Shown here one piece after another: positions 20,430 through 57,400 of a stretch of 64,000 nucleotides of DNA (position 1 is its first letter; every line of letters begins with the position of its first letter). The DNA is from Onthophagus taurus (lineage: Eukaryota > Arthropoda > Insecta > Coleoptera > Scarabaeidae). Under the pieces are notes generated by a model. The model ran no database searches. It saw only the letters and a list, made by a program, of their open reading frames with translations, and had not been told where the DNA came from. Location: assembly GCF_036711975.1 (NCBI RefSeq), contig NC_091968.1:26769001-26833000 (forward strand). Reading direction: 5' to 3'. Made by a program: the position numbers and the translations under genes.

Positions 20430-22922
20430 TAAACCCTATACTTTCTAGTTATAGGTCTAGTGTTAGTTCTAGTTTTACACTATCACTAGAACTAACATAA
20501 AATCTAGAACTAGAATCATTCGGGTTTAGCCCCACGTCTCTCAAGACGGCTAAACCCGAATGTTTCTAGTTCTAGGTCTAATGTTAGTTCTAGTAACAGT
20601 TATAGATTGCGCTAGTTAGCATAAAATATCACTATGTTGCATTTTTCATTGCACTAAAACTAGAACTAACACAAGACCTAGAACTAGAATCATTCGGGTT
20701 TAGCCGTCTTGTGAGACGTGCGGCTAAATCCGAATGTTTCTAGTTCTCGGTCTGGTGTTAGTTCTAGTTTTATACTAGCTCTATCACTAGAACTAACACT
20801 AGACCTAGAACTAGAATCATTCGGGTTTAGCCGTCTTTAGAGACGTCCGGCTAAACTCGAATGTTTCTAGTTCTCGGTCTAGTGCTAGTTCTAGTTTTAC
20901 ACTAGCACTATCACTAGAACTAACGCAAGACCTAGAACTATAATCATTCGGGTTTAGCCCCACGTCTTTCAAGACGGCTAAACCCGAATGTTTCTACTTC
21001 TAGGTCTAATATTAGTTCTAGTAACAGTTATAGATTGCGCTAGTTAGCATAAAATATCACTATGTTGCATTTTTCATTGCACTAAAACTAGAACTAACAC
21101 AAGACCTAGAACTAGAATCATTCGGGTTTAGCCGTCTTGTGAGACGTGCGGCTAAATCCGAATGTTTCTAGTTCTCGGTCTGGTGTTAGTTCTAGTTTTA
21201 TACTAGCTCTATCACTAGAACTAACACTAGACCTAGAACTAGAATCATTCGGGTTTAGCCGTCTTTAGAGACGTCCGGCTAAACTCGAATGTTTCTAGTT
21301 CTCGGTCTAGTGCTAGTTCTAGTTTTACACTAGCACTATCACTAGAACTAACGCAAGACCTAGAACTATAATCATTCGGGTTTAGCCCCACGTCTTTCAA
21401 GACGGCTAAACCCGAATGTTTCTACTTCTAGGTCTAATATTAGTTCTAGTAACAGTTATAGATTGCGCTAGTTAGCATAAAATATCACTATATATTGCAT
21501 TTTTCATTGCACTAAAACTAGAACTAACACAAGACCTAGAACTAGAATCATTCGGGTTTAGCCGTCTTGAGAGACGTGCGGCTAAATCCGAATGTTTCTA
21601 TTTCTCGGTCTGGTGTAAGTTCTAGTTTTATACTATTTCTATTACTAGAACTAACACTAGACCTAGAACTAAAATCATTCGGGTTTAGCCCCACGTCTCT
21701 CAAGACGGCTAAACCCGAATGTTTCTACTTCTAGGTCTAATATTAGTTCTAGTAACAGTTATAGATTGCGCTAGTTAGCATAAAATATCACTATGTTGCA
21801 TTTTTCATTGCACTAAAACTAGAACTAACACAAGACCTAGAACTAGAATCATTCGGGTTTAGCCGTCTTGAGAGACGTGCGGCTAAATCCGAATGTTTCT
21901 AGTTCTCGGTCTGGTGTTAGTTCTAGTTTTATACTAGCTCTATCACTAGAACTAACACTAGACCTGGAACTAGAATCATTCGGGTTTAGCCGTCTTTAGA
22001 GACGTACGGCTAAACTCGAATGTTTCTAGTTCTCGGTCTAGTGCTAGTTCTAGTTTTACACTAGCACTATCACTAGAACTAACACAAGACCTAGAACTAG
22101 CATCATTCGGGTTTAGCCCCACGTCTCTCAAGACGGCTAAACCCGAATGTTTCTACTTCTAGGTCTAATATTAGTTCTAGTAACAGTTATAGATTGCGCT
22201 AGTTAGCATAAAATATCACTATGTTGCATTTTTCATTGCACTAAAACTAGAACTAACACAAGACCTAGAACTAGAATCATTCGGGTTTAGCCGTCTTGAG
22301 AGACGTGCGGCTAAATCCGAATGTTTCTAGTTCTCGGTCTGGTGTTAGTTCTAGTTTTATACTAGCTCTATCACTAGAACTAACACTAGACCTGGAACTA
22401 GAATCATTCGGGTTTAGCCTTCTTTAGAGACGTACGGCTAAACTCGAATGTTTCTAGTTCTCGGTCTAGTGCTAGTTCTAGTTTTACACTAGCACTATCA
22501 CTAGAACTAACACAAGACCTAGAACTAGCATCATTCGGGTTTAGCCCCACGTCTTTCAAGACGGCTAAACCCGAATGTTTCTACTTCTAGGTCTAATATT
22601 AGTTCTAGTAACAGTTATAGATTGCGCTAGTTAGCATAAAATATCACTATATTGCATTTTTCATTGCACTAAAACTAGAACTAACACAAGACCTAGAACT
22701 AGAATCATTCGGGTTTAGCCGTCTTGAGAGACGTGCGGCTAAATCCGAATGTTTGTAGTTCTCGGTCTGGTGTTAGTTCTAGTTTTATACTAGCTCTATC
22801 ACTAGAACTAACACTAGACCTAGAATCATTTGGGTTTAGCCGCACGTCTCTAAAGACGGCTAAACCCGAATGATTCTAGTTCTAGGTCTAGTGTTAGTTC
22901 TAGTTTTGCACTAGAACTAACA
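20430..22922. repeat. Hairpin satellite: ~428-bp higher-order array of GGTTTAGCCG palindromes
   Basis: The marker TAGTTAGCATAAAATATCAC recurs near 20613, 21041, 21469, 21772, 22200 and 22629, so the long period is 428 bp with one shortened unit of 303 bp. Each unit contains several inverted repeats whose arms are CATTCGGGTTTAGCC and GGCTAAACCCGAATG around short loops such as ACGTCTCTCAAGAC. These are flanked by CTAGAACTAACAC and GTGTTAGTTCTAG pairs, so almost every segment can fold. No coding potential. Confidence 0.92.
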
Positions 22923-22923
22923 C

Positions 22924-23268
22924 AAATATTTAATTAGATATATATGTATATAAATTCTTAAATATAGAGATACCTATTTACACTTTATTTATACATGTTT
23001 ACAATTTATACACATTTTGACATACAAATGTCATCATGTAACATTAAACGTCATTTTGACGTTTAAATTTACAACGCATTAATTTCCCTAAAATGGTACC
23101 AACCTAAATTTTTAGATATCATTTGATAAATGTCGAATATTTCTAGTCGATTTTTTTAATAACCGTTTTGATTTATATATATTTCGCTATTTTTGAGTTT
23201 TTATTCGAATTGTGAATTTGTTATGAAGTGCTTTTGTATTTAATTAAAATAATAATCGTCAAATTGTT
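22924..23268 (+). repeat. K-core repeat, copy 3, with inverted flank
   Basis: AAATATTTAATTAGATATAT linker, then CAAATGTCATCATGTAACAT, then TAAAATGGTACCAACCTAAA. The tail 23199-23268 is the reverse complement, with changes, of 19420-19490 on the other side of the hairpin array. Confidence 0.7.
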
Positions 23269-23269
23269 G

Positions 23270-24420: not shown

Positions 24421-24447
24421 CTAAAATTTACTTCAAAGAGAACTTAC

Positions 24448-24745
24448 CAATAACCAAATAATGTTGTTCTTGCAATTTTGGGTCCTTCTCTCAATTTCGA
24501 CTTCTTTTAAAATGTCAAAAAGTCATGACACACCGCGTTTCTTTTGCAATTCACTCACACATCGACGATGTCACCGTTTTTCTTGTACCGTTTCTTTTTT
24601 TATTTCCTCAACGCCGAAGAGTTTTGCAGACCGAACGCGAATGCTTCTTGAAACTGCGAGATACAAACACAGTCTACCTATTTGGAGTGGGGGGGTTGGT
24701 GACGTCATGGAAAGCTCTCACTTCTTCGATGGAAGGGAAAGCTCC
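24448..24745 (-). other. candidate non-coding distal first exon and promoter of the TIPE gene
   Basis: A GC-richer block ends on the minus strand at a perfect donor (TTATTG, then GTAAGTTCTC at 24448-24447). No long ATG frame precedes the donor, so it would be 5' UTR. It lies just past the NRDE2 3' end, on the same strand as TIPE, and a consensus CRE lies upstream of it. Assignment to TIPE rests only on position. Confidence 0.35.
24700..24707. promoter_or_regulatory. CRE palindrome TGACGTCA
   Basis: A perfect cAMP-response-element octamer in the GC-richer block upstream of the candidate distal first exon. The position fits a promoter element; binding is unproven. Confidence 0.35.
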
Positions 24746-24957: not shown

Positions 24958-27900
24958 TTATCCTCTTAAAATATCTAATTCTTCCGGAGTTACATGAAGC
25001 CTTAACTGCTTCTCAATAAGTAAATCTTGAATTTGAGGTAACTCAGCAGGAATATAAACAGCAGCATCAATGTACAAAGCCTAAAACAGAGCATAAATTA
25101 ATCTTAAATTAACTATGTGATCCATGTTGGAAGTTATTTTCAGAACCGGTTTTGAATAATCATATTCATCAAATTTGGTATACATTATGAGTGTACTAAG
25201 GGTATTAATTTATTAATTGGTAGCAAATTGAGATCAATTAAGGTATTTCAAAGGGTTGATTAATTAAGTTGTTTTTCTGTTAAATCATTTTCGTTTATTA
25301 TTTATGTTGTTTTTTATGTAAAGGACAATGCTTTATAAGTTATAAATCCATGTCCCTTATATCTAAATCTGTCAAAATTCGACCATCACCCTTAATTAGC
25401 CCTTTTAAATACTTCAATTGGTCTTAACTTGCTACCAATTAATACCCTTGGTACACTTATAACGTATACCAAATTTAGTTTTTCTAGCTTAATGTATTAT
25501 GAAGATATTGAATGTTTTAAACATTTAAGACCCAACTTTGGAGGCCTATAACTTCTAAGGGTTAGTATAGAGATAAGTTGCGTTAAATCATCAGCTTTGT
25601 ATCTGTTCTTATATGAATCATCCTGTATATAGCATTGCAATTGTGACATTCAACAGAGTAAACTCCGTTGCTCTACAAGGAATCTTGTTTATAATGGTTA
25701 CTATTTGACAGAATCTTGCTTATTGTATACACAAAATGGCTTTAGATTGAATAGTTAAATTATTCCACTTTCAGTTAGGTTCATTAACATTTAAACCAGT
25801 GAGATCTAGTGTTAGTTTTAGTTTTACACTAGCATTCATTTAGTTTTGAAATAAATATGTCACACTGACGTTTGTTTGAACTTTTGTTATTCAAAAAGTC
25901 AAAAGATTAAAATAAAAGATAATCTAGAAAAATAGTATTTATCTAAAAATTTACTAATATTTTAACCTCAATTATTTAGTTACTGAAAATGTTACTAATA
26001 ATCAGGAAAACAACATAAATTTTATAAGGGTCTTAATAATACCAACAGAAACCCTAAATAATTTACCTTGACAAGATTTATAGAAAAAAAAAAACGAACT
26101 ATACATCATTTTGACACACAAATGTCATCATGTAACGTTAAACGTCATTTTGGCGTTTAAATTTACAACACATTTCGCTAAAATGGTACCAACCTAAATT
26201 TTTGGAAATCTTTTGATGAATGTCGAATATTTCTTGTCGATTTTTTTAATAACTGTTTTGATTTATATATATCTCGCTACTTTTAGTATTTTAAGAACAT
26301 TCTTTACATTAAATTAACTGATCTTTGAGTATTTCGAGATTTAGGTTTTTAACGATGTTGACGTTTCATTGTCAAATTGACGTTTAAAAGTCAAATAATT
26401 GTCAATTTTATTATTTACTTTTATGTATTAAATGTATTAGGTTGATGTATAATTATTGCATAGATTATTGTTGCATTTTTCATTGCACCAAAACTAGAGC
26501 TAACACTAGACCTAGAACTAGAAAGTATCGGGTTTAGCCGTGCGTCTATTATTCTAGGTCTAGTGTTAGTTCTAGTTTTACACTAGCACTAGAACTAACA
26601 CAAATATTTAATTAGATATATATGTATATGAGTCCCTAAATATATATGTAGATACTTATTTACAGTATTTATTTATACATGATTTTGACACACAGATGTC
26701 ATCATGTAACGTTAAACGTCATTTTGACGTTTAAATTTACAACACATTTCCCTAAAATGTTACCAACCTAAATTTTTGGAAATCTTTTGATGAATGTCAA
26801 ATATTTCTTGTCGATTTTTTTAATAACTGTTTTGATTTATATATATCTCGCTACTTTTAATATTTCAATAGCATTCTTTACATGCATTTACATTAAATTT
26901 AAACTGATCTTTGAGTTTTTTCAGATTAAGGTTTTCAACGATTTTGACGTTTAATTGTCAAATTGACGTTTAAAAGTCAAATATGTAATTGTGAATTTTA
27001 TTATTTACTTTTATGTATTAAATTATTAAGTCTAAAGACGCACGGCTAAACCCGACACTTTCTAGTTCTAGGTCTAGTGTTAGTTCTAGTTTTGCACTAG
27101 AACTGAGATAAGTATTTAATTAAATATACAGGGTGTGTCAAATGTTTGGAATATAGCTAATAACTTCGCCATTTGTGATTTTAGAGAAAAATGTTTCAAA
27201 TACTATTAATTATTGCGCATTTTTTGGCGATATTTGCTTATTTGAGTTGTTTTTTGTTTCGTTGCTATGGCAACCAACATTGTTATTTTAAATGGGATGC
27301 ATATATTTTTTTGCATACTTTGCATAAGTCCTTCTATGCGATGAACATATCAAATCATATGGTTGTATAAGAAAAAAATCGAGAAAAATGCGTTTTTTGA
27401 AAGTATTAAATCACCTAATTACAATCAAAGTAGGCGCCGAAATAAAGCCGTTGACAGCTTTAAATGTCAAAAAAATTACAGTTTCAACAATTATGAATAA
27501 TTAATAATATATGGTCATTGGTAGCTGTCTTTGGCCATCAATTTTTTTGAAGGTTTTTAACAGTTCCGGTGTTAAAGAATTTTTTTAATATTTTCGATAC
27601 TGTGGATTGTGTAATTTGTGTATCCTGGTTAATATCACCGTACCCATACATTATTAATATTTGAATTCTTTGTCGTTCGCTTAATTGCGCCATATTTGTT
27701 TAAACTATCAATTTTTTGACATTTAAAGCTGTCAACGGCGTTATTTCGACACCTCCTTTGATTGTAATTTGCTGATTTAATATTTACAGAGTGAATACAA
27801 CCATATGATTTGATATGTTGATCGCGTAGAGGGATTTATCCTCTATCAAAATGTGCAAAAAAAACATATGCATCCCATTTAAAATAACAATGTTGGTTGC

Positions 27901-30900
27901 CATAGCAACGAAACAAAGAACAATGTAAACAAGCAATTATCGTCAAAAAATGCGCCACAATTAATAAAGAATTTTTTATTTGAAACATTTTTCTATAAAA
28001 TCACAATTGGCGAAGTTATTGGCTATATTCCAGACATTTGACACACTCTGTATACAGGTGGTTCAGTTTTTAATCGGGATACTTTACATTTTACAAATTT
28101 ATTTTTGTAAAATTGGATTTTTTTTACTTTACAAATTTACATTTTTATCTTTTATTTCGGGTATATGTAACCCGTAAAATTTGAAATTCTGTATGTATAC
28201 TTTATTGTTTGTATACTTTATTTTCAACCATATCTTAAACTTCCCTAGCGCCCTCTAAGGGGATGAAATTTACAAAACCTTTTTTGTCTCTTTAGTTTTT
28301 TCCTTAAAGATAATATTATGTATATAAATCCTTAAATATACAGGGTGTCTCAGCGAGACCGGTCATTAGACGTTTCTGGGGTTCTGGCGAAAATAAAAAT
28401 TTGAGAATTCAGACTTAAGTATTATCAATTACGATCTCTTCGTCTAAAATATTTTCAGATTTCTTGCACTTCCGGTTATACCGGAAGTCGCCACCAACTT
28501 TATTTTTTTAAATGGAACATCCTGTATATTTTTACATATTTGGATTTCTCTGTTTTCAAGGTTTATGAATAACTTTACTTTTTGCAATTTGATTCGGCCG
28601 TTCTCGAGTTATTCGAATTTTTCTAGAAAAATATGCTCCAGCAGACATTTGTTCAAAAAATCAGAGAACACTCGATTTTTGGGATATCAATTTAGGATTG
28701 AGAACATGCTTAAGCAACATGATGGAGTATGTTTTGGTGCCGAGAACGGCTGTCTAGATCGTTTGGTCACTCTACTATGACATGTTCACTTTTCGAAATT
28801 TGGAAGCATCGTAACTTCATTTTTTTAAATGGCACCCCCCATATTTTATTACTTAGTCGTCTTCAGCGTCTCATTTTACATCTTTTATATTCCATATGTC
28901 CTATGCCTAACATTAATAGTTTGAGAAATAATTAGGGGTTTTTCAAAAATGCACACATATCATATGGATATTTAGCCTAGTGTGCCATGGAAAACAAATG
29001 TTTAATGACTTATTGATAAACGTCAAAGTCTGATTTACGTTGTTTGATGCTTGTGAGTCTAAAACCAGTTAAAATGGATATTAATAACGTAAATAATGTT
29101 TATACAAATGAAGAAATCCATAATTTATTTTTTGTGCACGAAAAGTGCGACAAAGTCACCCTGTATAGATGCGTATTTACACTCTTTATTTATACATGAT
29201 TTTGACACATAAATGTCATCATGTAACGTTAAACGTCATTTTGACGTTTAAATTTACAACACATTTCTCTAAAATGGTACCAACCTAAATTTTTGGAAAT
29301 CTTTAGATGAATGTCGAATATTTCTTGTCGATTTTTTTAATAACTGTTTTGATTTATATATATCTCGCTATTTTTAGTATTTTAATAACATTCTTTACAT
29401 TAATATAACTGATCTTTGAGTTTTTTGAGATTTAGGTTTTTAACGATGTTGACGTTTAAAAGTCAAATAATTGTGAATTTTATTATTCAGATATTTGAGG
29501 AACAACTAAAACTATATAGAATTATTTGGGTTTAACCAAACGTCACTTAATTGTGTTTTTCGTACTTAATTTAGATTCAGCTGATGATCAATAAGATTAT
29601 TCGAAACCGGTTCTGATAAAAATATTAATAAATCTAAGTTTGTTTTTTCTTTTAATCTTAAATTACTTAAATCAAAAAAGAATTACCTTTAACCACGGAC
29701 ATTCCTCAACAGCTTTATAATAAACATTCCTACACAAATTAGCGTCGTAATTCTCGTACAAAAATTGCAAATACAACCTCCAAATTAATCCGCACCGTCT
29801 CGTACAAACGCCAGAACTTGTTAAATCGCGAAATAACGAAGATATTTTATTTTTTAAGCACCCATTTGCGACCGTTTCTACCCAAGTTTCTTCGATTATA
29901 TTGATTTTTTCCATTTCAATGAGGATTAAAAATAAATTTGGGAATGCGTGCCCCGTTTGGGTTAATAAACGTTTTAATTTCCAAAAATTTTTCCCAATCG
30001 AACAAGAAAGATTTTCCGTTTTTGATAAAATCGTTAAAAAAAAGACGTTGTTTGGATAAGAAACGATGCTTTTAAACAATAACTCGTTTAAGTTTGTTAT
30101 TTTTTGTGGTGATACATTTTTTAGACGATCCTTAAAAACGAGGGAAACGTAAAATTCGAGTATAATTTCTTTTTCGAATACTTTCGATTCGAAATTTAAT
30201 AAAATCTCGTCTAGAAATGTTTTAGTTTCGTCAATTCCTTTGGTGTAATACATAAAAATCGCTTGACAAGTAATCCAATCGATCAAAAAATTCGGTAAGA
30301 AATGCTCAACAGTTTCAATTATTGAATCATCATCGTTTTGAAACAATTTTATCGTAACGTGTTTAAATTTTAGTGTTGCCTCGTTAATCGATGACTCAGA
30401 TATTTGAATATTTCTTTCAAGATTGATCCCTAATGCTAATCGTAATCCGTACTCCAAAGTTTTTTCACGATCATCCTCATTTAAATAAATCTCCATTAAC
30501 GTTTTATAAACAAAACATAAAGAACTTCTTAATAATCGATCACCAATTAAATCAATCGAACGGAAATTATCCTGCATTTTTAAAGTCGCCATTAAAACAT
30601 TCACCCCATTTTCAACACCATCATTCGTAAAAATCTCAATTAAACCAAACTCAACGTACAAAATAATATTATTTCCCGAATTTTTTAATAAATTCTTTCG
30701 ATCCGATTTCAACTTTTTCTGTAACTCTTTTGAAATGTTTAAAAATCCTTTTCTCTCCAAAACTAAGAGAACTCGGTGAAAACGCAACATCCAAACTGCA
30801 ATTGCAGTCTTTTCAGCTCCATTTAAAGCCTCTATCGATAAAGAGATTATTTCAAGAATCGATTTTAAGTATTCTTCTTGCCCAGGAAATTGTTTTAGAT

Positions 30901-33900
30901 ATTGGGGACCAACGGTAAACTTTTTTAAATAATTTAAAAAGTGTTGACTTGTTAAATCAATATGATGCGTTCGTAAAAATGTTGGCAAAACAATCGTTTC
31001 AATTGAATCCAACGACCATGGGACATAATCTAAACCGAAATTTTTCATTGTTGTGTGTCTACATGGTAAAAGTGGGACCTAAAATATAATAATTAATAAT
31101 TATTATTATTTTATAACCTCGTAGAATCTTAAGCTGATTCTGAAACTGTCTTAAATTTTTCTCCATCACGTCCAGAATCTGTATATTGACTCCATTACAC
31201 ATCACTAACTAGGTTTGATGAAAAACTTTGTGAAAATGTTGAATCCAGAAAGCCCAACATTTAAATATCGTACCGAGCTTTTTAAGGCGAGCGGTTCCAT
31301 CAAGATTTAATGACATTGGAAAGACATTATTAAGGTTACTGGGATGCAGGGATGGTGAGAGATTATCTCTGGAGTGTCGTCAGAGAAACCAACCCAAAGA
31401 CATAAAAAAAATTGTCGAAAACTAAGCACCGTAATAAATACCATTAAATTCATCTTTGTGTTGCATACCACATAAAATAAAACTAAATCAAGTGCTTCAT
31501 AGACAGCGCAAAAAATGGTATGCTGGCAGATAAACCTCAAAAAAGTCAACATACAGTAATGATTTGATACAAAAGAGCTTACACAGACATTTCTAGTTAA
31601 TATTTATGTTATTTTATGTTTAAAAAGTTTATGTTATAGTATCTAATTAACTTAGTAGAAAATCCCAGAACAAGTGCTCCTCAACTGGCAGTTCAACAAG
31701 CTACCCATAAAGTCGTGCATCCAGAAACTGTAAGTAGAGTGTTAAACCTTGTGTAAAACCTTTGATTTCTCAACAAAACAGGCAGAAAAGGATTGAATTT
31801 GCTAAAAGATATCTTGCAAGTGACTTTGAATTTTGGAGAACTAACACTATACCTAGAACTAGAATCATTTGGGTTTAGCCGCACGTCTCTAAAGACGGCT
31901 AAACCCAAATGATTCTAGTTCTAGGTATAGTGTTAGTTCTACATAGTAACTGTACTAGTGTAAAACTAGAACTAACTTGGGTTTAGCCGTATTGAGAGAC
32001 GTTCGGCTAAACCCTTCTAGTCTAATGTTAGTTCTAGTTGTTCCTTAAATATCTGAGCTTATTATGCAAATGGGTTAAGTTATATAGATTTAATACATAA
32101 AAGTAAATAATAAAATTCACAATTATTTAAACGTCAATTTGACAATTATTGACGTTTAATTGTCGATAAAAACTTAAATCTTAAAAAACTCAAAGATCAG
32201 TTAATTTAATGTAAAGAATGTTATTGAAATACTAAAAGTAGCGAAATATATATAAATCAAAACAGATATTAAAAAAATCAACAAGAAATATTCGAAATTC
32301 GTCAAAAGATTTCCAAAAATTTAGGTTGGTACCATTTTAGGGAAAATGTGTTGTAAATTTAAACGTCAAAATGACGTTTAACGTTACTTGACGTCATGTT
32401 TTTTTAAAGAAAATTAATTAATTTCTGTTTAAATCATATGAAAAAAGAATTGGTTTACGTTTTTTTAATATAACCTTTAGAAAGTCCGAAAAAATTAAAT
32501 GAAATTGACGTTTTTTAAAATTTTGACGTTTCAAATAATTATTATTAGTCAGTCAATTTGATTACCCGTGACTAATGATTATTTACCTCTATTATTCACT
32601 CTGTGAAAAATGACCACCTTTTGTTTTAGAAAATTCATTTATATGGTACATACCATCAGGTAGTCATGGACAAATATTATTATTATACAGGGTGTCTCAC
32701 GTAACTGGTTCATTAGAACTTTTCAGGTTCCACTATTCGTAGAGATTTGAAATTTTGGTAGCATGGGTTGTTCATTCGGAATTTTCCATCTAAAATATTT
32801 TCAAGATGTCTGCCACTTCCGGTCTACCGGAAGTAGACCATAACTTCGTTATTTTAAATGGAATGCTGTAATTTTTATTACACCATGTAAAAAAATAGGT
32901 TGACTTTGATAAAAATTATTGGTACGTAGCGTTTTTCGTTTTCGAGTTATTTTAGTTATAAGCTTTTTTTTGTAAATTTCAACATGCTCTTTAAAACCCG
33001 ATATCTCAACCAACGTTCATTCAAAAATGATCTACATTGACACGATTACTCTCCAGATGCTGTTAAATAGATTGTCATTTGTTGTATCGGAGTATCTTTT
33101 ACAGGATGGTCAAGAAAGTGGCGATCGTCTTGAAAATATTTTACGTCGAAAGTTCGGAATGAACAACCCATGCTACCAAAATTTCAAAACTATACCAATA
33201 GTGGAACCTAAAAACGTTATGACGAACCAGTTACGTGAGACACTCTGTATTTATATTATATGTATGTATATTATATTAATATATTAATTTTTTGTCAATT
33301 TGTTCGAGTTGGATAACCTTATAACTAATACTCAACTCCAATTAATGCCATCAATACCTCAAAATGTTCGTCTGGATCTCTACTTTTATGTCCATAGAGG
33401 TACAGAAGCACACTAAGTAAAATAAAAAATATACTGAGCATGAACCGTTACTATGTTTTTGAATTTACGATTTTCCACATTTTTGGGAATATCTCGAAAA
33501 CTGGACATGATGGAGAAAAGCTAAAGACAGTTTCAGAATCAGCTCTACGTTATAAAAAAATATCACAGTCTAAAGACGCACGACTAAACCCGAAATTTTC
33601 TAGTTCTAGGTCTAGTGTTAGTTCTAGTTTTAACTGTTGTAACAAACCGCCCTGTATATTAAATTGCGTTTTGTATAATTATTTTGCTTAAGTCAGCGTT
33701 ATCGGGTGAGGCGTTGATGCGCCACCGAGTTCGACTCGGGGAGTCGAGTACCAACTACCAAGGTAGATAGAAGCTACAGTCTTCCCCTTGAGTTCGCTCC
33801 ATTTCATTTTATTTTTAATTTAAACTCTCAATACTAAATTCGGAAAAGCTTCTAAATACGCTGGTGGTTTGTGCTGGGTAATTTGCTAGAGAAATCGAAT

Positions 33901-36900
33901 CCACAGATCGAAATTGTGCCTTGAAGCCAGTTCCTGAAGCGTCCGAAACCTGGTGGAAGAGCGTCGTCGTGGCGTAGAATAAGTAAGCATGATTAATTAC
34001 TATTGTTCTTGAAACTCATAATCATCGCTAGTATTTGTATCCATAGTTAACGTTCCGTTATCTAAAATTTGTTCAATTAGTTTTCGTTTTTCTTCTTTAG
34101 AATTTTAATTCAATTTTTGTTGGTTAATTTATTTTTCTATTTTTTTTAATATATTTTAATTTCCTTAATTTAATATATTAATATTTTTTTATATAAATTC
34201 TTGTTTCGTATTATTTCACTTTCAACACAAGGGCTACGATCCTCCCTCCTTTTACTCATTAACTTCTTAAACCGTTCGGCCAAGTACGAAACTTGCCTGG
34301 TGGTAGCATCTTAAAAATCTTCTATAATTTTTTCTCTTTTTCTGTAAGTACACGCTACCGTACTTCTATCTTTTCCCGTCCGCATAACGTTGGTGGCGGG
34401 TGCCCCTTTCTTCCTCTAATATTACATTGGTGGCGGCGGTGTTCCTTCCCTCCGCCAATATTACACTGTTATGCAGCGCTAGACCAAGAACTAGAATCAT
34501 TTAGGTTTAGCCGTCTTTAGAGACGTGCGACTAAACCCAAACGATTCTAGTTCTAGGTATAGTGCTAGTTCTACATAGTAACAGTGTTGGTGTAAAACTA
34601 GAACTAACACTAGACCTAGAAAGCCTCGGGGTTTTAATTATTATGCACCTAGAATCATTTGGATTTAGCCGTCTTTAGCGTCGTGCAGCTAAACTCAAAT
34701 GATTCTAGTTCTACGTATAATGTTAGTTCTACATAGTAATAGTGTTAGTGTAAAACTAGAACTAACACTACACTTTCTAGTTCTAGGTCTAATGTTAGTT
34801 CTAGTTTTAATTATTATTAAGCGCTAAATTGTTGTCTATTTTTACTAAAATAAAAGTAGATATTAACACTAGACCTAGAATCATTCGGGTTTAGATGTAT
34901 TGAGAGACATACGGCTAAAGTCGAATGTTTCTACTTTTGTATCTAGTGTTAGTTATACAGTATGTACCCAGATCGAGTTACAAAGAGGAAAAAAAATTTT
35001 ATTACTGATTTTTCAAACTTAGCATAAATAATGCGTCGGATATGTTCAAACCACTAAATCGCACAAATTTTATACTCTAACTATAGAAGTTAACTAATTA
35101 TTCCCATTTTTATGTAAAAATTGGACTTTTTTCTAAATTGAAAATTGTTCAAGTTCAATTTATGATATGTAACCATAGAAACCATAAAGAAGCAGACAAA
35201 GAAATTAAATGAGGAAGACGCTGCTTCTGTAATAGCATTAAATTCCATTCAAGAAGCTCCAAAATTATCACTTTAAAGAAGTGCGTTACAAAGAAAATAA
35301 AATTAAACCATTTAGACCACGATTTAGACAGACTTTGGATGCCGGGGGTGATGCCAAACGTTTGGATTTCTGTCTTGAGATTGGTAATGAAATATTAAAT
35401 AACCTAAATTTTCATAAATTGATTGTAATTTCGGATGAAAGCACCTTTTCAACAAATGGCATTGTTTCTTAACAGCATTGTCGTTATTGGAGTGATGTAA
35501 ATCCAAATTTTACACTCTCTAGAAGAAATATTTGGATATGTAACAAAATTATTTTAATGAACAACTTGCTGAATTACCCTTAAATTTTATACGGCCAATG
35601 TACTTTCATCAAGACGGTTGTCCAGCTCACCATTATGAAAAATGGATTGGATGAAATGGATTTTTATTTCTGGGGCCGAATGAAACAAATTGTTTACAGT
35701 GAATCATTATAAGACGATGCAGAACTATTAAAACTAAGAATAATTAATGCGATAGAATCTCACCACTGGCGGAAATTCGTAATTCTTATGAAGAATTTAG
35801 AAGTCGTCTTCAAATGTGTGCCGAATTAGGAGGTGATTTGTTTGAATGCATAGTTGATTTGTTCACTTACAAATAAATAATATTTATTACTTACATGGTG
35901 TGTTATTCCATAAATTTACATTTGAAATACTATTTTATTCAATTATTTAGCCATATTTTAACTTGATTTGTATCAACAAATTTTTTACTTCATAAATATA
36001 CTCAAATTCAGAATGTATTATCTCAAGAACGAATTGAGATATCTAAGTGCGGTTTCGTTCACGTAAAACTGCGTACTTTCCTATATAAGATAGGAATGTT
36101 TCATATAGATATCTTAAGAATTCGATTTTTTGCGATTTTTTAAAGACGATTGTAAAAAAAATTTTACTTCATAAAGATACTCAAATTCAGAATTTATTAT
36201 CTCAAGAACGAATTGAGATATTCAAGTGCGATTTTGTTCACATAAAAGTACGTACTTTCCTCTATAAGATGGGAATCTTTCATGTAGATATCTTAAGAAT
36301 TTGATTTTTACGATTTTTTTTTAAATAATGTGGAAATTTTTTTTACTACATAATTGAGGTTGAGTTCAAAAACTATTATCTCAAGAAAGAGTTGAGATAT
36401 TCAAGAACGGTTTTGTTCGCATAAAAGTACATACTTTTTTCTATATAGTGACAATGTTTCATGAAGATATCTTAAGAATCCGATTTTTTGCGATTTTTTA
36501 AAGACAATTGTAAAAAAATTTTTACTTCATAAAGACACTCAAATTCAGAATGTATTATCTCAAGAACAAATTGAGATATTCATGTGCGGTTTTGTTTACG
36601 AAAATGTACGTACTTTCCTCTATAACATGGGAATGTTTCATATAGATATCTTAAGAATTCGATTTTTATCGACTTGATTTTTATCAAGATTTGTCCGTAT
36701 ATTTTTCACTAACATAAGTTGTAACTTTTATGGTTTCTATGGTTACATATCATAAATTGAACTTGAAAAAATTTTAATTTAGAAAAAAAAGTCCAATTTT
36801 TACATAAAAATGGGTTTAAACATATCCGACGCATTATTTATGCTGAAATAAGTTTGAAAAATCAGTAATAATTTTTTCTTTCATCTTTGTAACTCTATCC

Positions 36901-43998: not shown

Positions 43999-43999
43999 A

Positions 44000-44927: not shown

Positions 44928-47900
44928 TTATAATTTCCTCGGTATAAACTTCATTTTCAACCCATGGGTTGTCCTGATAATTATATCGGTTTGAAGTGTG
45001 ATGGTATCCGGTGTATCAACCGGTTCTAATTGAAAATGTCTCATTACAGAAGCAACTGCGGTTTTTAATTCCAACATTGCAAATTTTTGGCCTAAAATAA
45101 TTTAATTATTTTATTTTTTGTATTTTAGACCAACACAAAATCGAACCTATGCAGTTCCTGGGTCCGGCACTGAATGGTATATAAGCAAACGGATGTCTTC
45201 CTTTGGAATTTTCGGGTAAAAACCGATCTGGATCGAATTTTTCCGGATCCGGATAAATTTCCGGATTCCTATGGATGTCATAAATCCTCACCATCACAAT
45301 CACATCTTTTGGAATTTTACATCCCGTACTGGTCACCATATCCTCGCTTGTACAACGTCCAATCATAGGAACGCTCGGATACAATCGCAAAGATTCTTTT
45401 ATAACTCGCTCCAAGTATTTCATTTGGCTTAAATCGTTCATCGTTATATCCCGATCGGAATCATCGCCGAAAATATCGTAAAGCTCTTCAAATATTTTTT
45501 GCTGAACGTCTTTATTGTTGGCGAGAAGCATGAATGTAAATGAAATGCTGGTTGCTGTTGTGTCGTGGCCCTTAAATGAAAAAAGATAGATTTTTGTATA
45601 TATCATTTTTGTGTATACCTCAAACATAAAGGTATCAACTTCTTCTTGAATTCCTTTATCATTGATGGCAGATCCGGATCGTTTTGCCGATAAAAGTAAA
45701 TCAAGCATAGCCATTTTTTTCTTAGTATTCAATTGAAAACCATCCTTCGTAGAGGTAATATCGGATGGATTAAATGTTGTTTCTCGGTCTTTGATTACTT
45801 TCATGGTGAATTTGTGAAGATAATTCGTGGTAATCCAAGATTCCCAAAATTGTCGTGAAAATATATAAATTAAAGGTGAATAGTACCACGGTCTAACTAT
45901 TCTATGCACTGTTAATTCGCCCATTCTAAAAAGAAGAATTACTAATTTAAGTAATTATTTGGATATAAATCTTACTTATAAATCGAATCTCGATAAGCAT
46001 CGCCGGATTTAGCCAAAGTTGTTCCCATAGCTGTTTCACAAATCGTTTGTAACGTGAATTGTGTCACGATCGGGACCACATCTATTACTTTATTCGCGTT
46101 TAATTTCAAATCTTGAACCAATTTTTTACCTTCGTCGATAAAAACGTCTGTGAATTCTTGTAAAATGTTAAAATGGAATGTCGGTGTTAAAACTTTACGT
46201 CTATATTGCCATTTAGGACCTTGAATAGAAAAAGTTTTCAATATTAAGAGATCTGGGAGGATATCGAAATGAAGTTAATATTTGAGCCCGATTTTATAAC
46301 ACGAGCGGGCGCGTGTCATAAATTTTATGACATCAGGTCTGTATTAATATGTATTATGTTATTTTTAATAAAACAGTTAAAACGCACATTTTGCTAGAGT
46401 AAAAATATTTCATTTATGTTAAACAATAATTGTTAAAAACACAAAATGAAATCGATTAATTTTAGGAATTTTCTACGGAATTTCATATAAGTCGCAATAT
46501 ATAAATGCAGTTCTAGGTCTTGTGTTAGTTGTAGTGATAGTGCTAGTATAAAAATAGAACTAACACTAAACCTAGAACTAGAATGTTTCGGATTTAGCCG
46601 TGCGTCTTCAGACGCTGTCAGTCTTGTTTGGACTCATTTTAAAGGTTTTTTTAATAAAGAATACATCATGAAATAGCACCATGAAGTTGTCTATTTGTCT
46701 ATTATATGATAACTAACTTCATGTTTAAAATGTCAACCTCAATTTTAACGTATTTGTAATCTTCATTAAAAATCCTTTAAAATGAGTACAAACACGACAT
46801 ATTTATCTTTAATATTAATGAAGTTATGGTCAACGTCTGGTTAAGAATGTCAACGTCAATTTTGACATATTTGTAATCGTCGTGAAAAATCCTTTAAAAT
46901 GAGTCCAAACACGATACGTTTAATTCCAATATTACTCGACATATAAGCAACTTCCGGTTTGAAATGTCAATGTCATTTTGACATATTCTTAATTTTTATA
47001 AAATGTCTTAATATTTGTCACAAAAACAAAAAAGTAATAAAAAAAAATCAAAAATTAAGGTTGGTATTAATATTTAAAAATTAAATTGCTATCTTCATTG
47101 TTGCTAACTTCGGGTTAAATGTTTTTTATTCTAACTTTTTTGTTTTTTGAGATAAATGCATCATGTTTGGACTCATTTTAAAGGTTTTTTAATAAAGAAC
47201 ACCATGAAGTTGTCCATTTGTCTGTTATATAATAACTAACTTCAGGTTTAAAACGTCAACGTCAATTTTGACGTATTTGTAATCTTCATTAAAAATCCTT
47301 TAAAATGAGTACAAACACGACATATTTATCTCCAATATTAATGAAGTTATGATCACTTCCGGTTAAGAATGTCAACGTCAATTTTGACATATTTGCAATC
47401 GTCGTGAAAAATCCTTTAAAATGAGTCTAAACACGATACGTTTAATTCCAGTATTACTCGAGATATAAACAACTTCCGGTTTGAAATGTCAATGTCATTT
47501 TGACATATTCTTAATTTTTATAAAATGTCTTAATATTTGTCACAAAAACAAAAAAGTAATAAAAAAAATCAAAAATTAAAGTTGGTATTGATATTTAAAA
47601 ATTAAATTGCTATCTTCATTATTGCTAACTTCGGGTTAAATGTTTTTTATTCTAACTTTTTTGTTTTTTAAGATAAGTGCATCATGTTTGGATTCATTTT
47701 AAAGGTTTTTTAATAAAGAACACCATGAAGTTGTCCATTTGTCTGTTATATAATAACTAACTTCAGGTTTAAAATGTCAACCTCAATTTTGACGTATTTG
47801 TAACCTTCATTAAAAATCCTTTAAAATGAGTACAAACACGACATATTTATCTCCAATATTAATGAAGTTATGATCACTTCCGGTTAAGAATGTCAACGTC

Positions 47901-50569: not shown

Positions 50570-53500
50570 AAATACTTTTATTTAATCTTCATTTAGACGA
50601 AAATTAAAATTTGACATTTAAATGTTATTTTTGACGTTTCGCTCACCCCATCTAGCGTCAATTTTTTAATTTATTTTTTATTGTTCTTCTAAAAAACTTT
50701 GATTTAATAAGTTATATTGTTTGAAAATAAGAGGAAAGAATATTAATCTTTGTTTAGGAGAAAATTTCAAATTTTTACATTTAATTTTTATTTAAATCGT
50801 AAAAACCCTTTTTACACTAGCGCCATCTAGCGTAAATCACCTACGTTAAGTCATATTTGACATTTTAAAACCACCGATTTATTTCTTGCTAATATTATCG
50901 AGTTTTATCAAAAAAATAAGTCCAAATGAAGCGAAAGAAACCTCAAAATACGTTTTTGGACTCCCAAAGTATATGTTTAAAGTGAGTGTGGATTCCAGTA
51001 AGCGATTTTTTCTCTTAAATTAGGGAATGTAGTTTGAGTAGAAAACATAACCTAACTTTCTTAATTGAAGATTATTGGAGATTTAAAAAAATCGATTTGA
51101 TCTATTAAACGGAAAAATGGTAAGTATAACTAATTTAAAATCATTAATTAACCCCATTATTAATTTGTTCAATAAAAATATACAACATGGTAATATCTTA
51201 CCACTGCCACTAGAATTAACACTAAACCGAGAACTAGAAACATTCGGATTTAGCAGCACGTCTCGCAAGACTGCTAAACCCGAATGATTCTAGTTTTAAG
51301 TCTTATGTTAGCTCTAGTGATAGTACAAGTGCAAAACCAGAACTAACACAAGACACACAACTTATCATCTACCATTTTGAAGCAGATTAAGCTTTAATTT
51401 TAATTAGTAGACGATTCTTTTAAGATAACACAAGACAATTAATCTTCATTTAGACGAAAATTAAAATTTGACATTTACATGTTATTTTTGACGTTTCGCT
51501 CACCCCCATCTAGCGTCAATTTTTTAATTTATTTTTTATTATTCTTTTAAAAAACTTTGATTCAATAAATTATATTGTTTGAAAAATAAGAGGAAAGAAT
51601 ATTAATCTTTGTTTAGGAGAAAATTTCAAATTTTTACATTTAATTTTTATTTAAATCGTAAAAAACCCTTTTCTACACTAGCGCCATCTAGCGTAAATCA
51701 CCTACGTTAAATCATATTTGACATTTTAAAACCACCGATTTATTTCTTGCTAATATTATCGAGTTTTATCAAAAAAATAAGTCCAAATGAAGCGAAAGAA
51801 ACCTCAAAATATGTTTTTGGACTCCCAAAGTATATGTTTAAAGTGAGTGTGGATTCCAGTAAGCGATTTTTTCCCTTAAATTAGGGAATGTAGTTTGATA
51901 GAAAACATAACCTAACTTTCTTAATTGAAAATTATTGGAGGTTTTAAAAAATCGATTTGATCTATTAAACGGAAAAAATGGTAAGTAATTAATTTAAAAT
52001 CATTAATTAACTCCATTATTAATTTGTTCAATAAAAATATACAACATGGTAATATCTTAAAACTGCCACTAGAATTAACACTAAACCGAGAACTAGAAAC
52101 ATTCGGATTTAGCAGCACGTCTCGCAAGACTGCTAAACCCGAATGACTCTAGTTTTAAGTCTTATGTTAGCTCTAGTGATAGTACAAATGCAAAACCAGA
52201 ACTAACACAAGACACACAACTTACGCAACACACAACTTATCATCCACCATTTTGAAGCAGATTAAGGTTTAATTTGAATTAGTAGACGATTCTTTTAAGA
52301 TAACACAAGACAATTAATCTTCATTTAGACGAAAAATAAAATTTGACATTTAAATGTTATTTTTGACGTTTCGCTCACCCCCATCTAGCGTCAATTTTTG
52401 AATTTATTTTTTATTATTTTTCTAAAAAACTTTGATTCAATAATTTATATTGTGTGGAAATAAGAGGAAAGAATATTAATCTTTGTTTAGGAGAAAATTT
52501 CAAATTTTTACATTTAATTTTTATTTAAATCGTAAAAAACCCTTTTTTACACTCGCGCCATCTAGCGTAAATCACCTACGTTAAGTCATATTTGACATTT
52601 TAAAACCACCGATTTATTTCTTGCTAATATTATCGAGTTTTATCAAAAAAATAAGTCCAAATGAAGCGAAAGAAACCTCAAAATATGTTTTTGGACTCCA
52701 AAAGTATATGTTTAAAGTGAGTGTAGATTCCAGTAAGCGATTTTTTCCCTTAAATTAGGGAATGTAGTTTGACAGAAAACATAACCTAACTTTCTTAATT
52801 GAAAATTATTGAAGAGTTAAAAAAATCGATTTGATCTTTTAAACGGAAAAAATGGTAAGTAATTAATTTAAAATCATTAATTAACCCCATTATTAATTTG
52901 TTCAATAAAAATATACAACATGCTAATATCTTATGCTAACTAGCGCTACTTACCACTGCCACTAGAACTAACACTAAACCGAGAACTAGAAACATTCGGA
53001 TTTAACAGCACGTCTCGCAAGACTGATAAACCCGAATGATTCTAGTTTTAAGTCTTATGTTAGCTCTAGTGATAGTACATGTCGCGAATCATAAGACCAC
53101 CGGTCTTACATTCCACGATGGTTCGGAAACAAAACGCTTACAGTCATTGATCAACGTTTATTTCAACAAAACACGTGTTATCATAACCACTCGAACTCAA
53201 TATATAATATGAGCCATACACCATACATGAGCCGAGCGAACGCGATACGACGGAGTTCTAAAAGCTACTAAAAATAACGTCGATTCTTCGCAGGTCCCCC
53301 CCTAACAATAAAGCGCTGACGCCCCTACTCGGTAGGCAACCCAATTGACAACTAAATAAATACGAATTCTCAACAGTACAAGTGCAAAACCAGAACTAAC
53401 ACAAAACACACAACTTATCATCCACAATTTTGAAGCAGATTAAGGTTTAATTTGAATTAGTAGACGATTCTTTTAAGATAACGCAAACCAATTAATCTTC

Positions 53501-56500
53501 ATTTAGACGAAAATTAAAATTTGACATTTAAATGTTATTTTTGACGTTTCGCTCACCCCATCTAGCGTCAATTTTTGAATTTATTTTTTATTATTCTTCT
53601 AAAAAACTTTGATTCAATAAATTATATTGTTTGAAAAATAAGAGGGAAGAATATTAATCTTTGTTTAGGAGAAAATTTCAAATTTTTACATTTAATTTTT
53701 ATTTAAATCGTAAAAAACCCTTTTTTACACTCGCGCCATCTAGCGTAAATCACCTACGTTAAGTCATATTTGACATTTTAAAACCACCGATTTATTTCTT
53801 GGTAATATTATCGAGTTTTATCAAAAAAATAAGTCCAAATGAAGCGAAAGAAACCTCAAAATACGTTCTTGGACTCCCAAAGTATATGTTTAAAGTGAGT
53901 GTGGATTCCAGTAAGCGATTTTTTCCCTTAAATTAGGGAATGTAGTTTGATAGAAAACATAACCTAACTTTCTTAATTGAAAATGATTGGAGATTTAAAA
54001 AAATCGATTTGATCTATTAAACGGAAAAAATGGTAAGTAATTAATTTAAAATCATTAATTAACCCATTATTAATTTGTTCAATAAAAATATACAACATGG
54101 TAATATCTTACCACTGCCACTAGAATTAACACTAAACCGAGAACTAGAAACATTCGGATTTAGCAGCACGTCTCGCAAGACTGCTAAACCCGAATGATTC
54201 TTGTTTTAAGTCTTATGTTAGCTCTAGTGATAGTACAAGTGCAAAACCAGAACTAACACAAGACACACAACTTACGCAACACACAACTTATCATCCACCA
54301 TTTTGAAGCAGATTAAGGTTTAATTTGAATTAGTAGACGATTCTTTTAAGATAACACAAGACGATTAATCTTCATTTAGACGAAAATTTAAATTTGTCAT
54401 TTAAATGTTATTTTTGACGTTTCGCTCACCCCATCTAGCGTCAATTTTTGAATTTATTTTTTATTATTTTTCTAAAAAACTTTGATTTAATAAATTATAT
54501 TGTTTGAAAATAAGAGGAAAGAATATTAATCTTTGTTTAGGAGAAAATTTCAAATGTTTACATTTAATTTTTATTTAAATCGTAAAAAACCCTTTTTTAC
54601 ACTCACGCCATCTAGCGTAAATCACCTACGTTAAGTCATATTTGACATTTTAAAACCACCGATTTATTTCTTGCTAATATTATCGAGTTTTATCAAAAAA
54701 ATAAGTCCAAATGAAGCGAAAGAAACCTCAAAATACGTTTTTGGACTCCCAAAGTATATGTTTAAAGTGAGTGTGGATTCCAGTAAGCGATTTTTTCCCT
54801 TAAATTAGGGAATGTAGTTTGATAGAAAACATAACCTAACTTTCTTAATTGAAAATGATTCGAGATTTAAAAAATCGATTTGATCTATTAAACGGAAAAA
54901 ATGGTAAGTAATTAATTTAAAATCATTAATTAACCCCATTATTAATTTGTTCAATAAAAATATACAACATGGTAATATCTTACCACTGCCACTAGAATTA
55001 ACACTAAACCGAGAACGAGAAACATTCGGATTTAGCAGCACGTCTCGCAAGACTGCTAAACCCGAATGATTCTAGTTTTAAGTCTTATGTTAGCTCTAGT
55101 GATAGTACAAATGCAAAACCATAACTAACACAAGATACACAACTTACGTAACACACAACTTATCATCCACTATTTTGAAGCAAATAGTTTAAGCTTTAAT
55201 TTGAATTAGTAGACGATTCTTTTAAGATAACACAAGACAATTAATGTTCATTTAGACGAAAATTTAAATTTGTCATTTAAATGTTATTTTTGACATTTCG
55301 CTCACCCCCATCTAGCGTCAATTTTTTAATTTATTTTTTATTATTCTTTTAAAAAACTTTGATTCAATAAATTATATTGTTTGAAAATCAGAGGAAAGAA
55401 TATTAATCTTTGTTTAGGAAAAAATTTCAAATTTTTACATTTAATTTTTATTTAAATCGTAAAAACTTGTTTTTACACTAGCGCCATCTAGCGTAAATCA
55501 CCTACGTTAAGTCATATTTGACATTTTAAAACCACCGATTTATTTCTTGGTAATATTATCGAGTTTTATCAAAAAAATAAGTCCAAATGAAGCGAAAAAA
55601 ACATCAAAATACGTTTTTGGACTCCAAAAGTATATGTTTAAAGTGAGTGTAGATTCCAGTAAGCGATTTTTTCCCTTAAATTAGGGAATGTAGTTTGATA
55701 GAAAACATAACCTAACTTTCTTAATTGAAAATTATTGGAGATTTAAAAAATCGATTTGATCTATTAAACGGAAAAATGGTAAGTAATTAATTTAAAATCA
55801 TGAATTAACCCCATTATTAATTTGTTCAATAAAAATATACAACATGGTAATATCTTATGCTAACTAGCGCTACTTACCACTGCCGCTGGAATTAACACTA
55901 AACCGAGAATTAGAAACATTCGGATTTAGCAGCACGTCTCGCAAGACTGCTAAACCCGAATGATTCTAGTTTTAAGTCTTATGTTAGCTCTAGTGATAGT
56001 ACAAGTGCAAAACCAGAACTAACACAAGACACACAACTTACGTAACACATAACTTATCATCCACAATTTTGAAGCAGATTAAGGTTTAATTTGAATTAGT
56101 AGACGATTCTTTTAAGATAACGCAAGACAATTAATCTTCATTTAGACGAAAATTAAAATTTGACATTTAAATGTTATTTTTGACGTTTCGCTCACCCCAT
56201 CTAGCGTCAATTTTTTAATTTATTTTTTATTATTCTTCTAAAAAACTTTGATTCACTAAATAATATTGTTTGATAATAAGAGGACAGAATATTAATCTAT
56301 GTTTAGGAGAAAATTTCAAATTTTTACATTTAATTTTTATTTAAATCGTAAAAAAACCCTTTTTACACTCGCGCCATCTAGCGTAAATCACCTACGTTAA
56401 GTCATATTTGACATTTTAAAACCACCGATTTATTTCTTGGTAATATTATCGAGTTTTATCAAAAAAATAAGTCCAAATGAAGCGAAAAAAACATCAAAAT

Positions 56501-57400
56501 ACGTTTTTGGACTTCCAAAGTATATGTTTAAAGTGAGTGTAGATTCCAGTAAGCGATTTTTTCCCTTAAATTAGGGAATGTAGTTTGATTAGAAAACATA
56601 ACCTAACTTTCTTAATTGAAAATTATTGAAGATTTAAAAAAAATCGATTTGATCTATTAAACGGAAAAAATGGTAAGTAATTAATTTAAAATCATTAATT
56701 AACTCCATTATTAATTTGTTCAATAAAAATATACAACATGGTAATATCTTAAAACTGCCACTAGAATTAACACTAAACCGAGAACTAGAAACATTCGGAT
56801 TTAGCAGCACGTCTCGCAAGACTTCTAAACCCGAATGATTCTAGTTTTAAGTCTTATGTTAGCTCTAGTGATAGTACAAATGCAAAACCAGAACTAACAG
56901 AAGATACACAACTTACGTAACACACAACTTATCATCCACTATTTTGAAGCAAATAGTTTAAGCTTTAATTTGAATTAGTAGACGATTCTATTAAGATAAC
57001 ACAAGACAATTAATCTTCATTTAGACGAAAATTTAAATTTGTCATTTAAATGTTATTTTTGACGTTTCGCTCACCCCCATCTAGCGTCAATTTTTTAATT
57101 TATTTTTTATTATTCTTCTAAAAAACTTTGATTCAATAAATTATATTGTTTGAAAAATAAGAGGAAAGAATATTAATCTTTGTTTAGGAGAAAATTTCAA
57201 ATTTTTACATTTAATTTTTATTTAAATCGTAAAAAACCCCTTTTTACACTCGCGCCATCTAGCGTAAATCACCTACGTTAAGTCATATTTGACATTTTAA
57301 AACCACCGATTTATTTCTTGCTAATATTATCGAGTTTTATCAAATGAAGCGAAAAAAAACTCAAAATACGTTTTTCGACTCTAAAAGTATGAGTTTAAAG
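50570..57400. repeat. Satellite C: ~876-bp units containing the hairpin module
   Basis: CTTCATTTAGACG (or GTTCATTTAGACG) recurs at about 50587, 51444, 52319, 53497, 54370, 55246, 56136 and 57015. Spacing is 857-890 bp, apart from one interval of 1178 bp that falls to 877 bp when the LTR insertion is removed. Every complete unit has GCGCCATCTAGCGTAAATC, a TTTTTGGACTC stretch, AACATAACCTAACTTTC, and a hairpin with ACATTCGGATTTAGCAGC and GCTAAACCCGAATG arms. The array fills the space between the CYP4 upstream region and the transporter 3' end. Short open frames in it recur once per unit and are not genes. Confidence 0.94.
53080..53375. mobile_element. solo LTR, 296 bp, with 5-bp target duplication
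   Basis: It begins TGTCGCGAATCATAAG and ends AATTCTCAACA, with GTACA on both sides (53075-53079 and 53376-53380). It interrupts one unit of satellite C, and removing it restores the array period. TG/CA ends and a 5-bp duplication fit a solo LTR (copia or BEL type). The interior is GC-richer than the array. Confidence 0.85.

What the first reader, a model, noticed from the sequence alone, without database searches (positions are those of the whole stretch)
20430..57390. One hairpin module is built into several different satellites
A palindromic module with arms around GGTTTAGCCG / CGGCTAAACC and flanks CTAGAACTAACAC / GTGTTAGTTCTAG makes up the 20.4-22.9 kb array. It sits once per unit in the otherwise unrelated 876-bp satellite at 50.6-57.4 kb. 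It alternates with the K core at 26.1-27.1 kb, and occurs singly or in clusters at 31.84, 33.57, 34.48-34.95 and 46.5 kb. A foldback that joins several array types could be a mobile end or a recombination/replication hot spot that seeds tandem arrays. The sequence sharing is direct; the mechanism is inference.
Basis: partly seen in the sequence, partly recalled or inferred. Interest (0 to 1): 0.72.

Follow-up and report, generated by a model that had tools for sequence, protein, structure and literature searches.

The report
Hairpin-rich repeat feeding two satellites
In this stretch of what looks like an insect genome, a DNA hairpin of about 110 bases is one piece of an old scattered repeat, and neighbouring pieces of that repeat have been copied into two different tandem arrays, much as has been described for other repeats.

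Summary
A ~110-bp palindrome occurs as 17 full copies in the 20.4-22.9 kb array, 7 copies in the 876-bp satellite, 5 full or near-full dispersed copies and 6 halves. An array-only model scores satellite copies at 95.7-101.4 bits; the best of 40 shuffled windows is 6.7.

The reading needs correction. The satellite is not "otherwise unrelated": one unit shares 222 collinear columns (78%) with the array: part of one hairpin, short linker, whole hairpin, spacer. Six of 7 long K copies lie within 53 bp of a hairpin. The hairpin is one component of a dispersed composite repeat, not a free-standing mobile end.

Two hints of hairpin behaviour: loops of third-position array hairpins are reversed relative to their neighbours (5 of 5 tested), and 6 of 17 scored breakpoints fall at the loop, though significance goes once copies of likely common descent are merged. 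The 876-bp array does not begin or end at the palindrome. No target duplication was seen. The genome could not be searched (14 requests unanswered). New member of the known foldback/satellite network.

The parts
20418..20473 (.). half hairpin (loop plus right arm) 6 bp after the K core 3' end
   Evidence: profile hit ending at the loop; K 3' part at 20284-20411
20485..22904 (+). hairpin array: 17 full ~110-bp palindromes, 428-bp higher-order repeat of mostly three hairpins with 17-bp short linkers and a ~60-bp spacer (linkerA)
20595..20654 (+). linkerA (first of 6 copies in the array; others start at 21023, 21451, 21754, 22182, 22610)
20284..20411 (+). K core, 3' part, left flank of the array
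22926..23194 (+). K core, 5' part, right flank of the array
19109..19388 (-). K core copy without a hairpin nearby (nearest 1029 bp)
26100..26439 (+). K core copy
26493..26576 (.). hairpin with left arm complete to the loop and most of the right inner arm missing
26604..27030 (+). K core copy (reference used here)
27032..27090 (.). half hairpin at the K 3' end
29166..29487 (+). K core copy of the K-linkerB-hairpin unit
29504..29550 (+). degenerate left half hairpin stopping at the loop (15.0 bits)
31837..31941 (+). most symmetrical hairpin copy (folding energy -51.6 kcal/mol); left edge abuts a Tc1-like transposase relic (recognised by eye, from memory)
31961..32038 (-). second hairpin, shortened
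32088..32397 (-). K core copy of the K-linkerB-hairpin unit
33569..33628 (.). half hairpin, stops at the loop
34477..34573 (-). hairpin copy
34597..34731 (-). hairpin copy split by ~27 bp of other sequence
34746..34809 (.). outer arm fragments of a hairpin whose middle is missing
34862..34957 (-). diverged hairpin copy, bounded on the right by a mariner-like end (recognised from memory)
46507..46534 (.). outer arm fragment next to the half hairpin (10.4 bits)
46555..46612 (.). half hairpin, stops at the loop
50582..57400 (+). 876-bp satellite array: 8 whole or partial cores with 7 hairpins between them
55821..56038 (-). stretch of one satellite unit collinear with the hairpin array (arm fragment, short linker, hairpin, spacer, linkerA)
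   Evidence: 222 aligned columns, 78% identity; linkerA 55870-55824
8453..8505 (+). linkerA relic followed by a hairpin outer arm
   Evidence: 57-column match, 86%, score 70 against a maximum of 31 in 200 shuffles

Best explanation
The hairpin is one component of an old, dispersed, composite repeat family whose recurring pieces are the K core, short linkers and one or more ~110-bp hairpins (foldback-like; no coding region of the family seen here). Broken copies are scattered through the window. In two places parts were amplified in tandem: between two K ends, a cluster of (mostly) three hairpins plus linkerA was multiplied into the 428-bp higher-order array; elsewhere a piece of such a cluster, up to 222 columns long, became joined to a ~650-bp core of other origin and the whole ~876-bp unit was multiplied. 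Shown: the sharing, the order of the pieces, and loops that point the opposite way from their neighbours'. Inferred: that the family once moved as a transposable element, that tandem growth came from unequal exchange or circular intermediates, and that loop reversal came from pairing of the two arms of a hairpin or cruciform.
For: Collinear 222-column match (78%, gaps counted) of the array with the 876-bp unit at 55.9 kb; the commoner unit form (51.2 kb) gives 154 columns at 84% (arm fragment, short linker, hairpin). LinkerA in 2 of 7 satellite units at 83-85%; the other 5 lack ~19 bp of it between CTTA repeats. K-linkerB-hairpin in the same order at 29.2 kb (+) and 32.1 kb (-), 93% identity over aligned bases, 420 columns of which 94 are gaps, the 29.2 kb hairpin being degenerate. 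Six of 7 K copies over 120 bp lie 1-53 bp from a hairpin. The array is flanked by a K 3' end on the left and a K 5' start on the right. The K-3'-end to half-hairpin junction recurs at 20.4 and 27.0 kb. By the satellite-only model, position-1 array hairpins are closest to the satellite hairpin (102.6-108.5 bits against 76.6-95.0 for the other full array hairpins). Loops of 5 third-position array hairpins match the first hairpin's loop reversed at 19-20 of 22 versus 7 of 22 direct, while their left arms match in the same direction at 42-43 of 44 versus 38-39 swapped.
Against: No full-length element with matching ends or a target-site duplication was delimited, and no coding region was tied to the family. 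One long K copy (19109-19388) has no hairpin near it, and a 41-bp K-like match at 42066-42105 was left out of the count. The third satellite unit tested (52.8-53.1 kb, cut by an insert) matched over 116 columns only, and without linkerA the 51.2 kb unit aligns best to hairpins 1-2, not 2-3, so which array hairpin it corresponds to is uncertain. Right arms of the third array hairpins favour neither direction (38 versus 39 of 44), and against the satellite reference the arms hardly discriminate (L-L 38-39 versus 36-38, R-R 37 versus 37), so turning of the whole hairpin rather than the loop is not excluded. Paired stem changes do not clearly exceed shuffles (4 pairs with double change, reached by 345 of 500; covariation score reached by 35 of 500), so nothing shows that the structure is maintained.
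Confidence: 0.62

Rival explanations
1. The hairpin is itself a short mobile foldback element (MITE-like) that inserts alone, including into the ancestor of the 876-bp satellite.
For: Lone copies in several contexts; the 31837 copy starts near its outer edge inside a Tc1-like transposase relic; three half copies share the same start GTCTNAAGACGCACG with different upstream sequence (27.03, 33.57, 46.61 kb).
Against: No target duplication seen by eye at the lone half copies; the satellite carries linkers and part of a second hairpin as well, so it did not simply receive a lone hairpin; K and linkers usually lie beside it.
Confidence: 0.15
2. The hairpin is a recombination or replication hot spot: extruded hairpins are cut at the tip and seed tandem arrays.
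For: Six half copies stop at the loop; 6 of 17 hand-scored breakpoints within 5 positions of the centre, P 0.005; reversed loops; satellite junctions at a palindrome have been reported (phBglII400, 13 of 16 breakpoints at the longer palindrome; PMC5139131, passages).
Against: After merging the two halves at K ends, 5 of 15, P 0.013; after merging all halves of one type, 3 of 13, P 0.13; both ends of the 876-bp array lie in its core; breakpoints were scored by hand after the pattern was seen and the list is not exhaustive; the same paper finds junctions of another satellite (DTHS3) scattered at random and concludes that palindromes are not needed.
Confidence: 0.15
3. The pieces are ends and hairpins of a rolling-circle element (Helitron/Helentron type), which would give tandem and circularly permuted copies.
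For: Circular-permutation-like junctions (K 3' end to half hairpin at two places; a 66-bp segment at 80% that precedes K at 19.4 kb and follows K at 22.9 kb); tandem arrays within such elements are described (PMC12628747, heading 5 whole and heading 4 first part).
Against: No replicase seen; no defined element ends established; the hairpin is far longer than a Helitron 3' hairpin (recalled).
Confidence: 0.06
4. Chance similarity of CTAG-rich low-complexity words, or an assembly artefact.
For: Arms consist largely of CTAG-bearing six-base words.
Against: Full-length cross-family scores of 71-109 bits against shuffle maxima of 6.7-10.1 bits; copies diverged from one another; a 296-bp insert with a GTACA duplication sits in one satellite unit of 7.
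Confidence: 0.02

Closest known systems
Tetris foldback transposon and TIR-220 satellite of Drosophila virilis (PMC4079207)
   Same: Foldback-like, no coding capacity, many rearranged copies, internal tandem repeats that also form longer satellite-like arrays.
   Different: Tetris has long terminal inverted repeats holding ~220-bp tandem repeats and 8-10 bp target duplications; here each tandem unit is itself a ~110-bp palindrome and no duplication was seen. Abstract and sections 10 and 17 read.
TCAST transposon-like elements of Tribolium castaneum (PMC3411249)
   Same: Satellite sequence embedded in dispersed repeats able to form hairpins.
   Different: There ~269-bp terminal inverted repeats, the two satellite segments ~306 bp apart, and in some copies an ACT duplication; no such frame was delimited here. 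Passages read.
Composite satellite monomers from 'transposon graveyards' (PMC12628747)
   Same: Satellite monomer assembled from pieces of other repeats, then amplified: fits the 876-bp unit.
   Different: A general hypothesis; here both the donor-like cluster and the recipient satellite lie in one 64-kb window. Abstract, heading 5 whole and first part of heading 4 read.
phBglII400 satellite of molluscs (PMC5139131)
   Same: Satellite junctions fall at a palindrome.
   Different: Short 10-12 bp palindromes, not a 110-bp hairpin. Abstract and passages read.

Membership tests
Foldback (FB-type) DNA transposon | long terminal inverted repeats at both ends of an element | tested here: inconclusive
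   Hairpins lie on one or both sides of K, but no copy with matching inverted ends was delimited
Foldback (FB-type) DNA transposon | tandem sub-repeats within the inverted repeats | tested here: inconclusive
   Tandem hairpins lie between K ends, but it is not shown that they are terminal repeats of an element
Foldback (FB-type) DNA transposon | target-site duplication of fixed size | tested here: inconclusive
   None seen by eye at the 33.57 and 46.5 kb half copies; element limits unknown, no systematic scan was run
MITE (hairpin as a free unit) | precise ends flanked by target duplication | tested here: inconclusive
   Shared start of three half copies, no duplication seen by eye
Helitron/Helentron | 5' TC, 3' CTRR with short hairpin, no target duplication (recalled) | not tested
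   Element ends not delimited, so the end motifs were not tested
Satellite DNA | head-to-tail tandem array of similar units | tested here: met
   428-bp array, 876-bp array
Structured RNA gene | match to a described RNA family | tested here: not met
   0 matches at gathering score in the window
Structured RNA gene | covarying stem | tested here: inconclusive
   11 copies aligned; double-changed pairs 4 against 4.2 in shuffles (345 of 500 as high), covariation score 0.076 against 0.062 (35 of 500)

The most novel reading that the evidence does not exclude
Long hairpins in this genome really extrude and act: their loops flip in place, they break at the tip, and the broken tips seed tandem arrays and carry pieces into other satellites, so that one foldback cluster works as a local generator of new satellites.
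Probability: 0.15. Interest if true: 0.6.

Novelty: new member of a known kind. Interest (0 to 1): 0.34.

Why it matters
A donor-like cluster, dispersed relatives and two satellites that share its pieces lie side by side, so steps by which a scattered repeat turns into satellites can be read from one locus. The reversed loops give a simple mark of hairpin-mediated rearrangement that could be counted genome-wide.

Tried and rejected
Whole-genome search for the palindrome: unanswered in all 14 attempts. Searches of viral contigs (4 patterns) and of prokaryote genome contigs (1 pattern) found nothing, as expected for an insect-like repeat. Full-text search for five sequence words found one paper, a yeast study, which I judge irrelevant from its listing. 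Rfam at gathering score: no match. Stem covariation as a sign of maintained structure: not clearly above shuffles. Homology of the K core with the 876-bp core: scores 26 and 28 against a mean of 25 and a maximum of 39 in 200 shuffles, so rejected. Empty-site comparison using the repeat at 37.41-37.58 kb next to the 33.57 kb half hairpin: similarity ends within the shared letters AGTCT at the junction, so no clean empty site, and those letters may belong to the flank rather than to the hairpin. Breakpoint positions were entered by hand after the pattern had been noticed, and the list of 17 is not exhaustive; treat the P values as rough. The chance CTAG-word explanation was rejected.

Full report
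Setting. The window holds AT-rich DNA with coding stretches of ordinary animal genes: ATP synthase OSCP, a TNFAIP8-like protein, NRDE-2, a cytochrome P450 and an amino-acid permease, plus a transposase-like stretch (6 of 7 stretches scanned had a Pfam match; NRDE-2 and the transposase-like DDE match lie below their curated cut-offs). That it is an insect is my judgement from the kinds of genes and repeats, not a call result. Several satellites are present.

The observation. The palindrome is real and far beyond chance. GGTTTAGCCG with up to one mismatch occurs 52 times against 1.21 expected. A profile built from 12 copies finds 17 full copies in the 20.4-22.9 kb array, 7 in the 876-bp satellite, 5 full or near-full dispersed copies and 6 halves, besides small fragments down to noise level. 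Because that profile was trained on all groups, I rebuilt it from each group alone: the array-only model scores satellite copies at 95.7-101.4 bits, the satellite-only model scores the 17 full array copies at 76.6-108.5 bits, and the model from dispersed copies scores satellite copies at 71.2-76.7 bits, against best scores of 6.7, 8.5 and 10.1 bits in 40 dinucleotide-shuffled windows. Six of 6 copies folded as DNA hairpins beat all 200 shuffles. Of 41 strong foldback centres in the window, 40 lie in this family (some are dyads across the short linkers inside the array).

What it is part of. Three results show that the hairpin travels with company. First, the 876-bp unit at 55.9 kb, one of 2 of 7 that keep the full spacer, aligns with the array over 222 columns at 78% identity: end of one hairpin arm, short linker, whole hairpin, spacer and linkerA, in that order. 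Of the other two units aligned, the common form at 51.2 kb gives 154 columns at 84% (arm end, short linker, hairpin; best against hairpins 1-2 of the array repeat), and the 53.0 kb unit, cut by an insert, gives 116 columns at 89%. LinkerA itself matches over 47 bp at 83-85% in those 2 of 7 units; the other 5 lack about 19 bp lying between CTTA repeats. Second, the K core occurs in 7 copies over 120 bp (a 41-bp match at 42.07 kb was not counted), and 6 of the 7 lie 1-53 bp from a hairpin copy. At 29.2 kb on the plus strand and at 32.1 kb on the minus strand K, linkerB and hairpin follow in the same order, 93% identical over aligned bases in 420 columns with 94 gap columns. Third, the 428-bp array itself is bounded by a K 3' end on its left and a K 5' start on its right, so it looks like an inter-K hairpin cluster grown in place. 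A faint relic with linkerA followed by a hairpin arm lies at 8453-8505 (score 70 against a maximum of 31 in 200 shuffles). The K core and the 876-bp core are not detectably related.

How the pieces behave. In the array's three-hairpin repeat, the loop of the third hairpin is reversed. In the 5 third-position copies compared (of 6; the copy at 20485 was not in that call, but its loop was scored the same way) the loop matches the first hairpin's loop at 19-20 of 22 positions when reversed and 7 of 22 when direct, whereas the left arm matches at 42-43 of 44 in the same direction against 38-39 swapped. The right arm does not discriminate (38 against 39), and against the satellite hairpin the arms hardly do. 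That the loop alone turned therefore rests on the left arm and on the arm marks (right arm of the beta type in 16 of 17 array copies; left arm alpha in 15 of 17, two unassigned); turning of the whole hairpin is not excluded. The short linkers on either side keep their direction. In the 55.9 kb satellite unit, between flanks collinear with the third hairpin, the loop lies the other way round. Pairing of the two arms followed by resolution or repair would produce this; the mechanism is inference. The six half copies stop at the loop. With 17 breakpoints entered by hand, 6 fall within five positions of the centre (P 0.005); merging the two halves at K ends gives 5 of 15 (P 0.013), merging all halves of one type 3 of 13 (P 0.13). 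I regard tip breakage as suggestive only. Three halves share the start GTCTNAAGACGCACG with different upstream sequence (27.03, 33.57 and 46.61 kb), which could equally be an element end. The ends of the 876-bp array lie in its core, not in the hairpin (50582 and 57400). Stem changes are not clearly compensated: 4 double-changed pairs, reached by 345 of 500 shuffles; covariation score reached by 35 of 500.

Mechanism. The best-supported account is a dispersed composite repeat with foldback character, now in pieces, from which two tandem arrays drew: one by local multiplication of the hairpin cluster, the other after a piece of such a cluster had become joined to another sequence. Unequal exchange and circular intermediates are both possible; the recurring K-3'-end to half-hairpin junction (20.4 and 27.0 kb), and a 66-bp segment (80%) that precedes K at 19.4 kb but follows it at 22.9 kb, hint at tandem or circular forms.

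Comparison. Tetris of Drosophila virilis is the nearest case I found of a foldback element giving rise to a satellite (PMC4079207; abstract and two sections read). TCAST transposon-like elements of Tribolium castaneum join satellite and hairpin-forming repeats (PMC3411249; passages). The idea of composite satellite monomers from degraded transposons is in print (PMC12628747; abstract and two headings, one in part), and so is clustering of one satellite's junctions at a palindrome, with other satellites in the same paper not showing it (PMC5139131; abstract and passages). Of a Tribolium madens satellite paper (PMC13081366) I saw the outline and abstract only. I found no paper naming this repeat: five sequence words gave one unrelated listing, and subject searches listed none that I recognised as it; most of those papers were seen only as listings. 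Membership in any named transposon superfamily cannot be claimed: ends, duplication and transposase are missing.

Limits. No other genome copy could be examined: 14 whole-genome requests were unanswered, and four viral and one prokaryote contig scans were empty. All conclusions rest on one 64-kb window.

Noticed in passing
53080-53375: A 296-bp insert with TG...CA ends and a 5-bp GTACA duplication sits beside the hairpin in one of the 7 satellite units; it looks like a solo LTR.
   Followed up: partly
10439-13606 and 46621-48900: A satellite of ~513-531 bp spacing, each unit with about 2.3 copies of a 117-bp repeat, occurs at two places; sequence related to it begins within about 25 bp of the half hairpin at 46.61 kb.
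   Followed up: no
50649-57264, for example 51507-51515 and 51676-51693: The 876-bp core carries CATCTAGCG words twice per unit, in three places within CACTAGCGCCATCTAGCG, which resembles the CTCF core motif as recalled; GCGCCATCTAG also occurs at 7073 and 8312.
   Followed up: partly
31501-31838: Relic of a Tc1-like transposase (recognised by eye in translation) that ends at the outer edge of the hairpin.
   Followed up: partly
1-4233, 59963-61821 and 63579-64000: A 180/363-bp satellite at the left end and a 181/365-bp one near the right end, the latter in two blocks; the left and right ones share no match with each other at E 1e-3.
   Followed up: partly
19433-19487 (-) and 23192-23260: A shared segment precedes the K core at one site and follows it at the other, as in a circular permutation.
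   Followed up: partly
59490: The only strong foldback in the window outside the hairpin family (25-bp arms).
   Followed up: no
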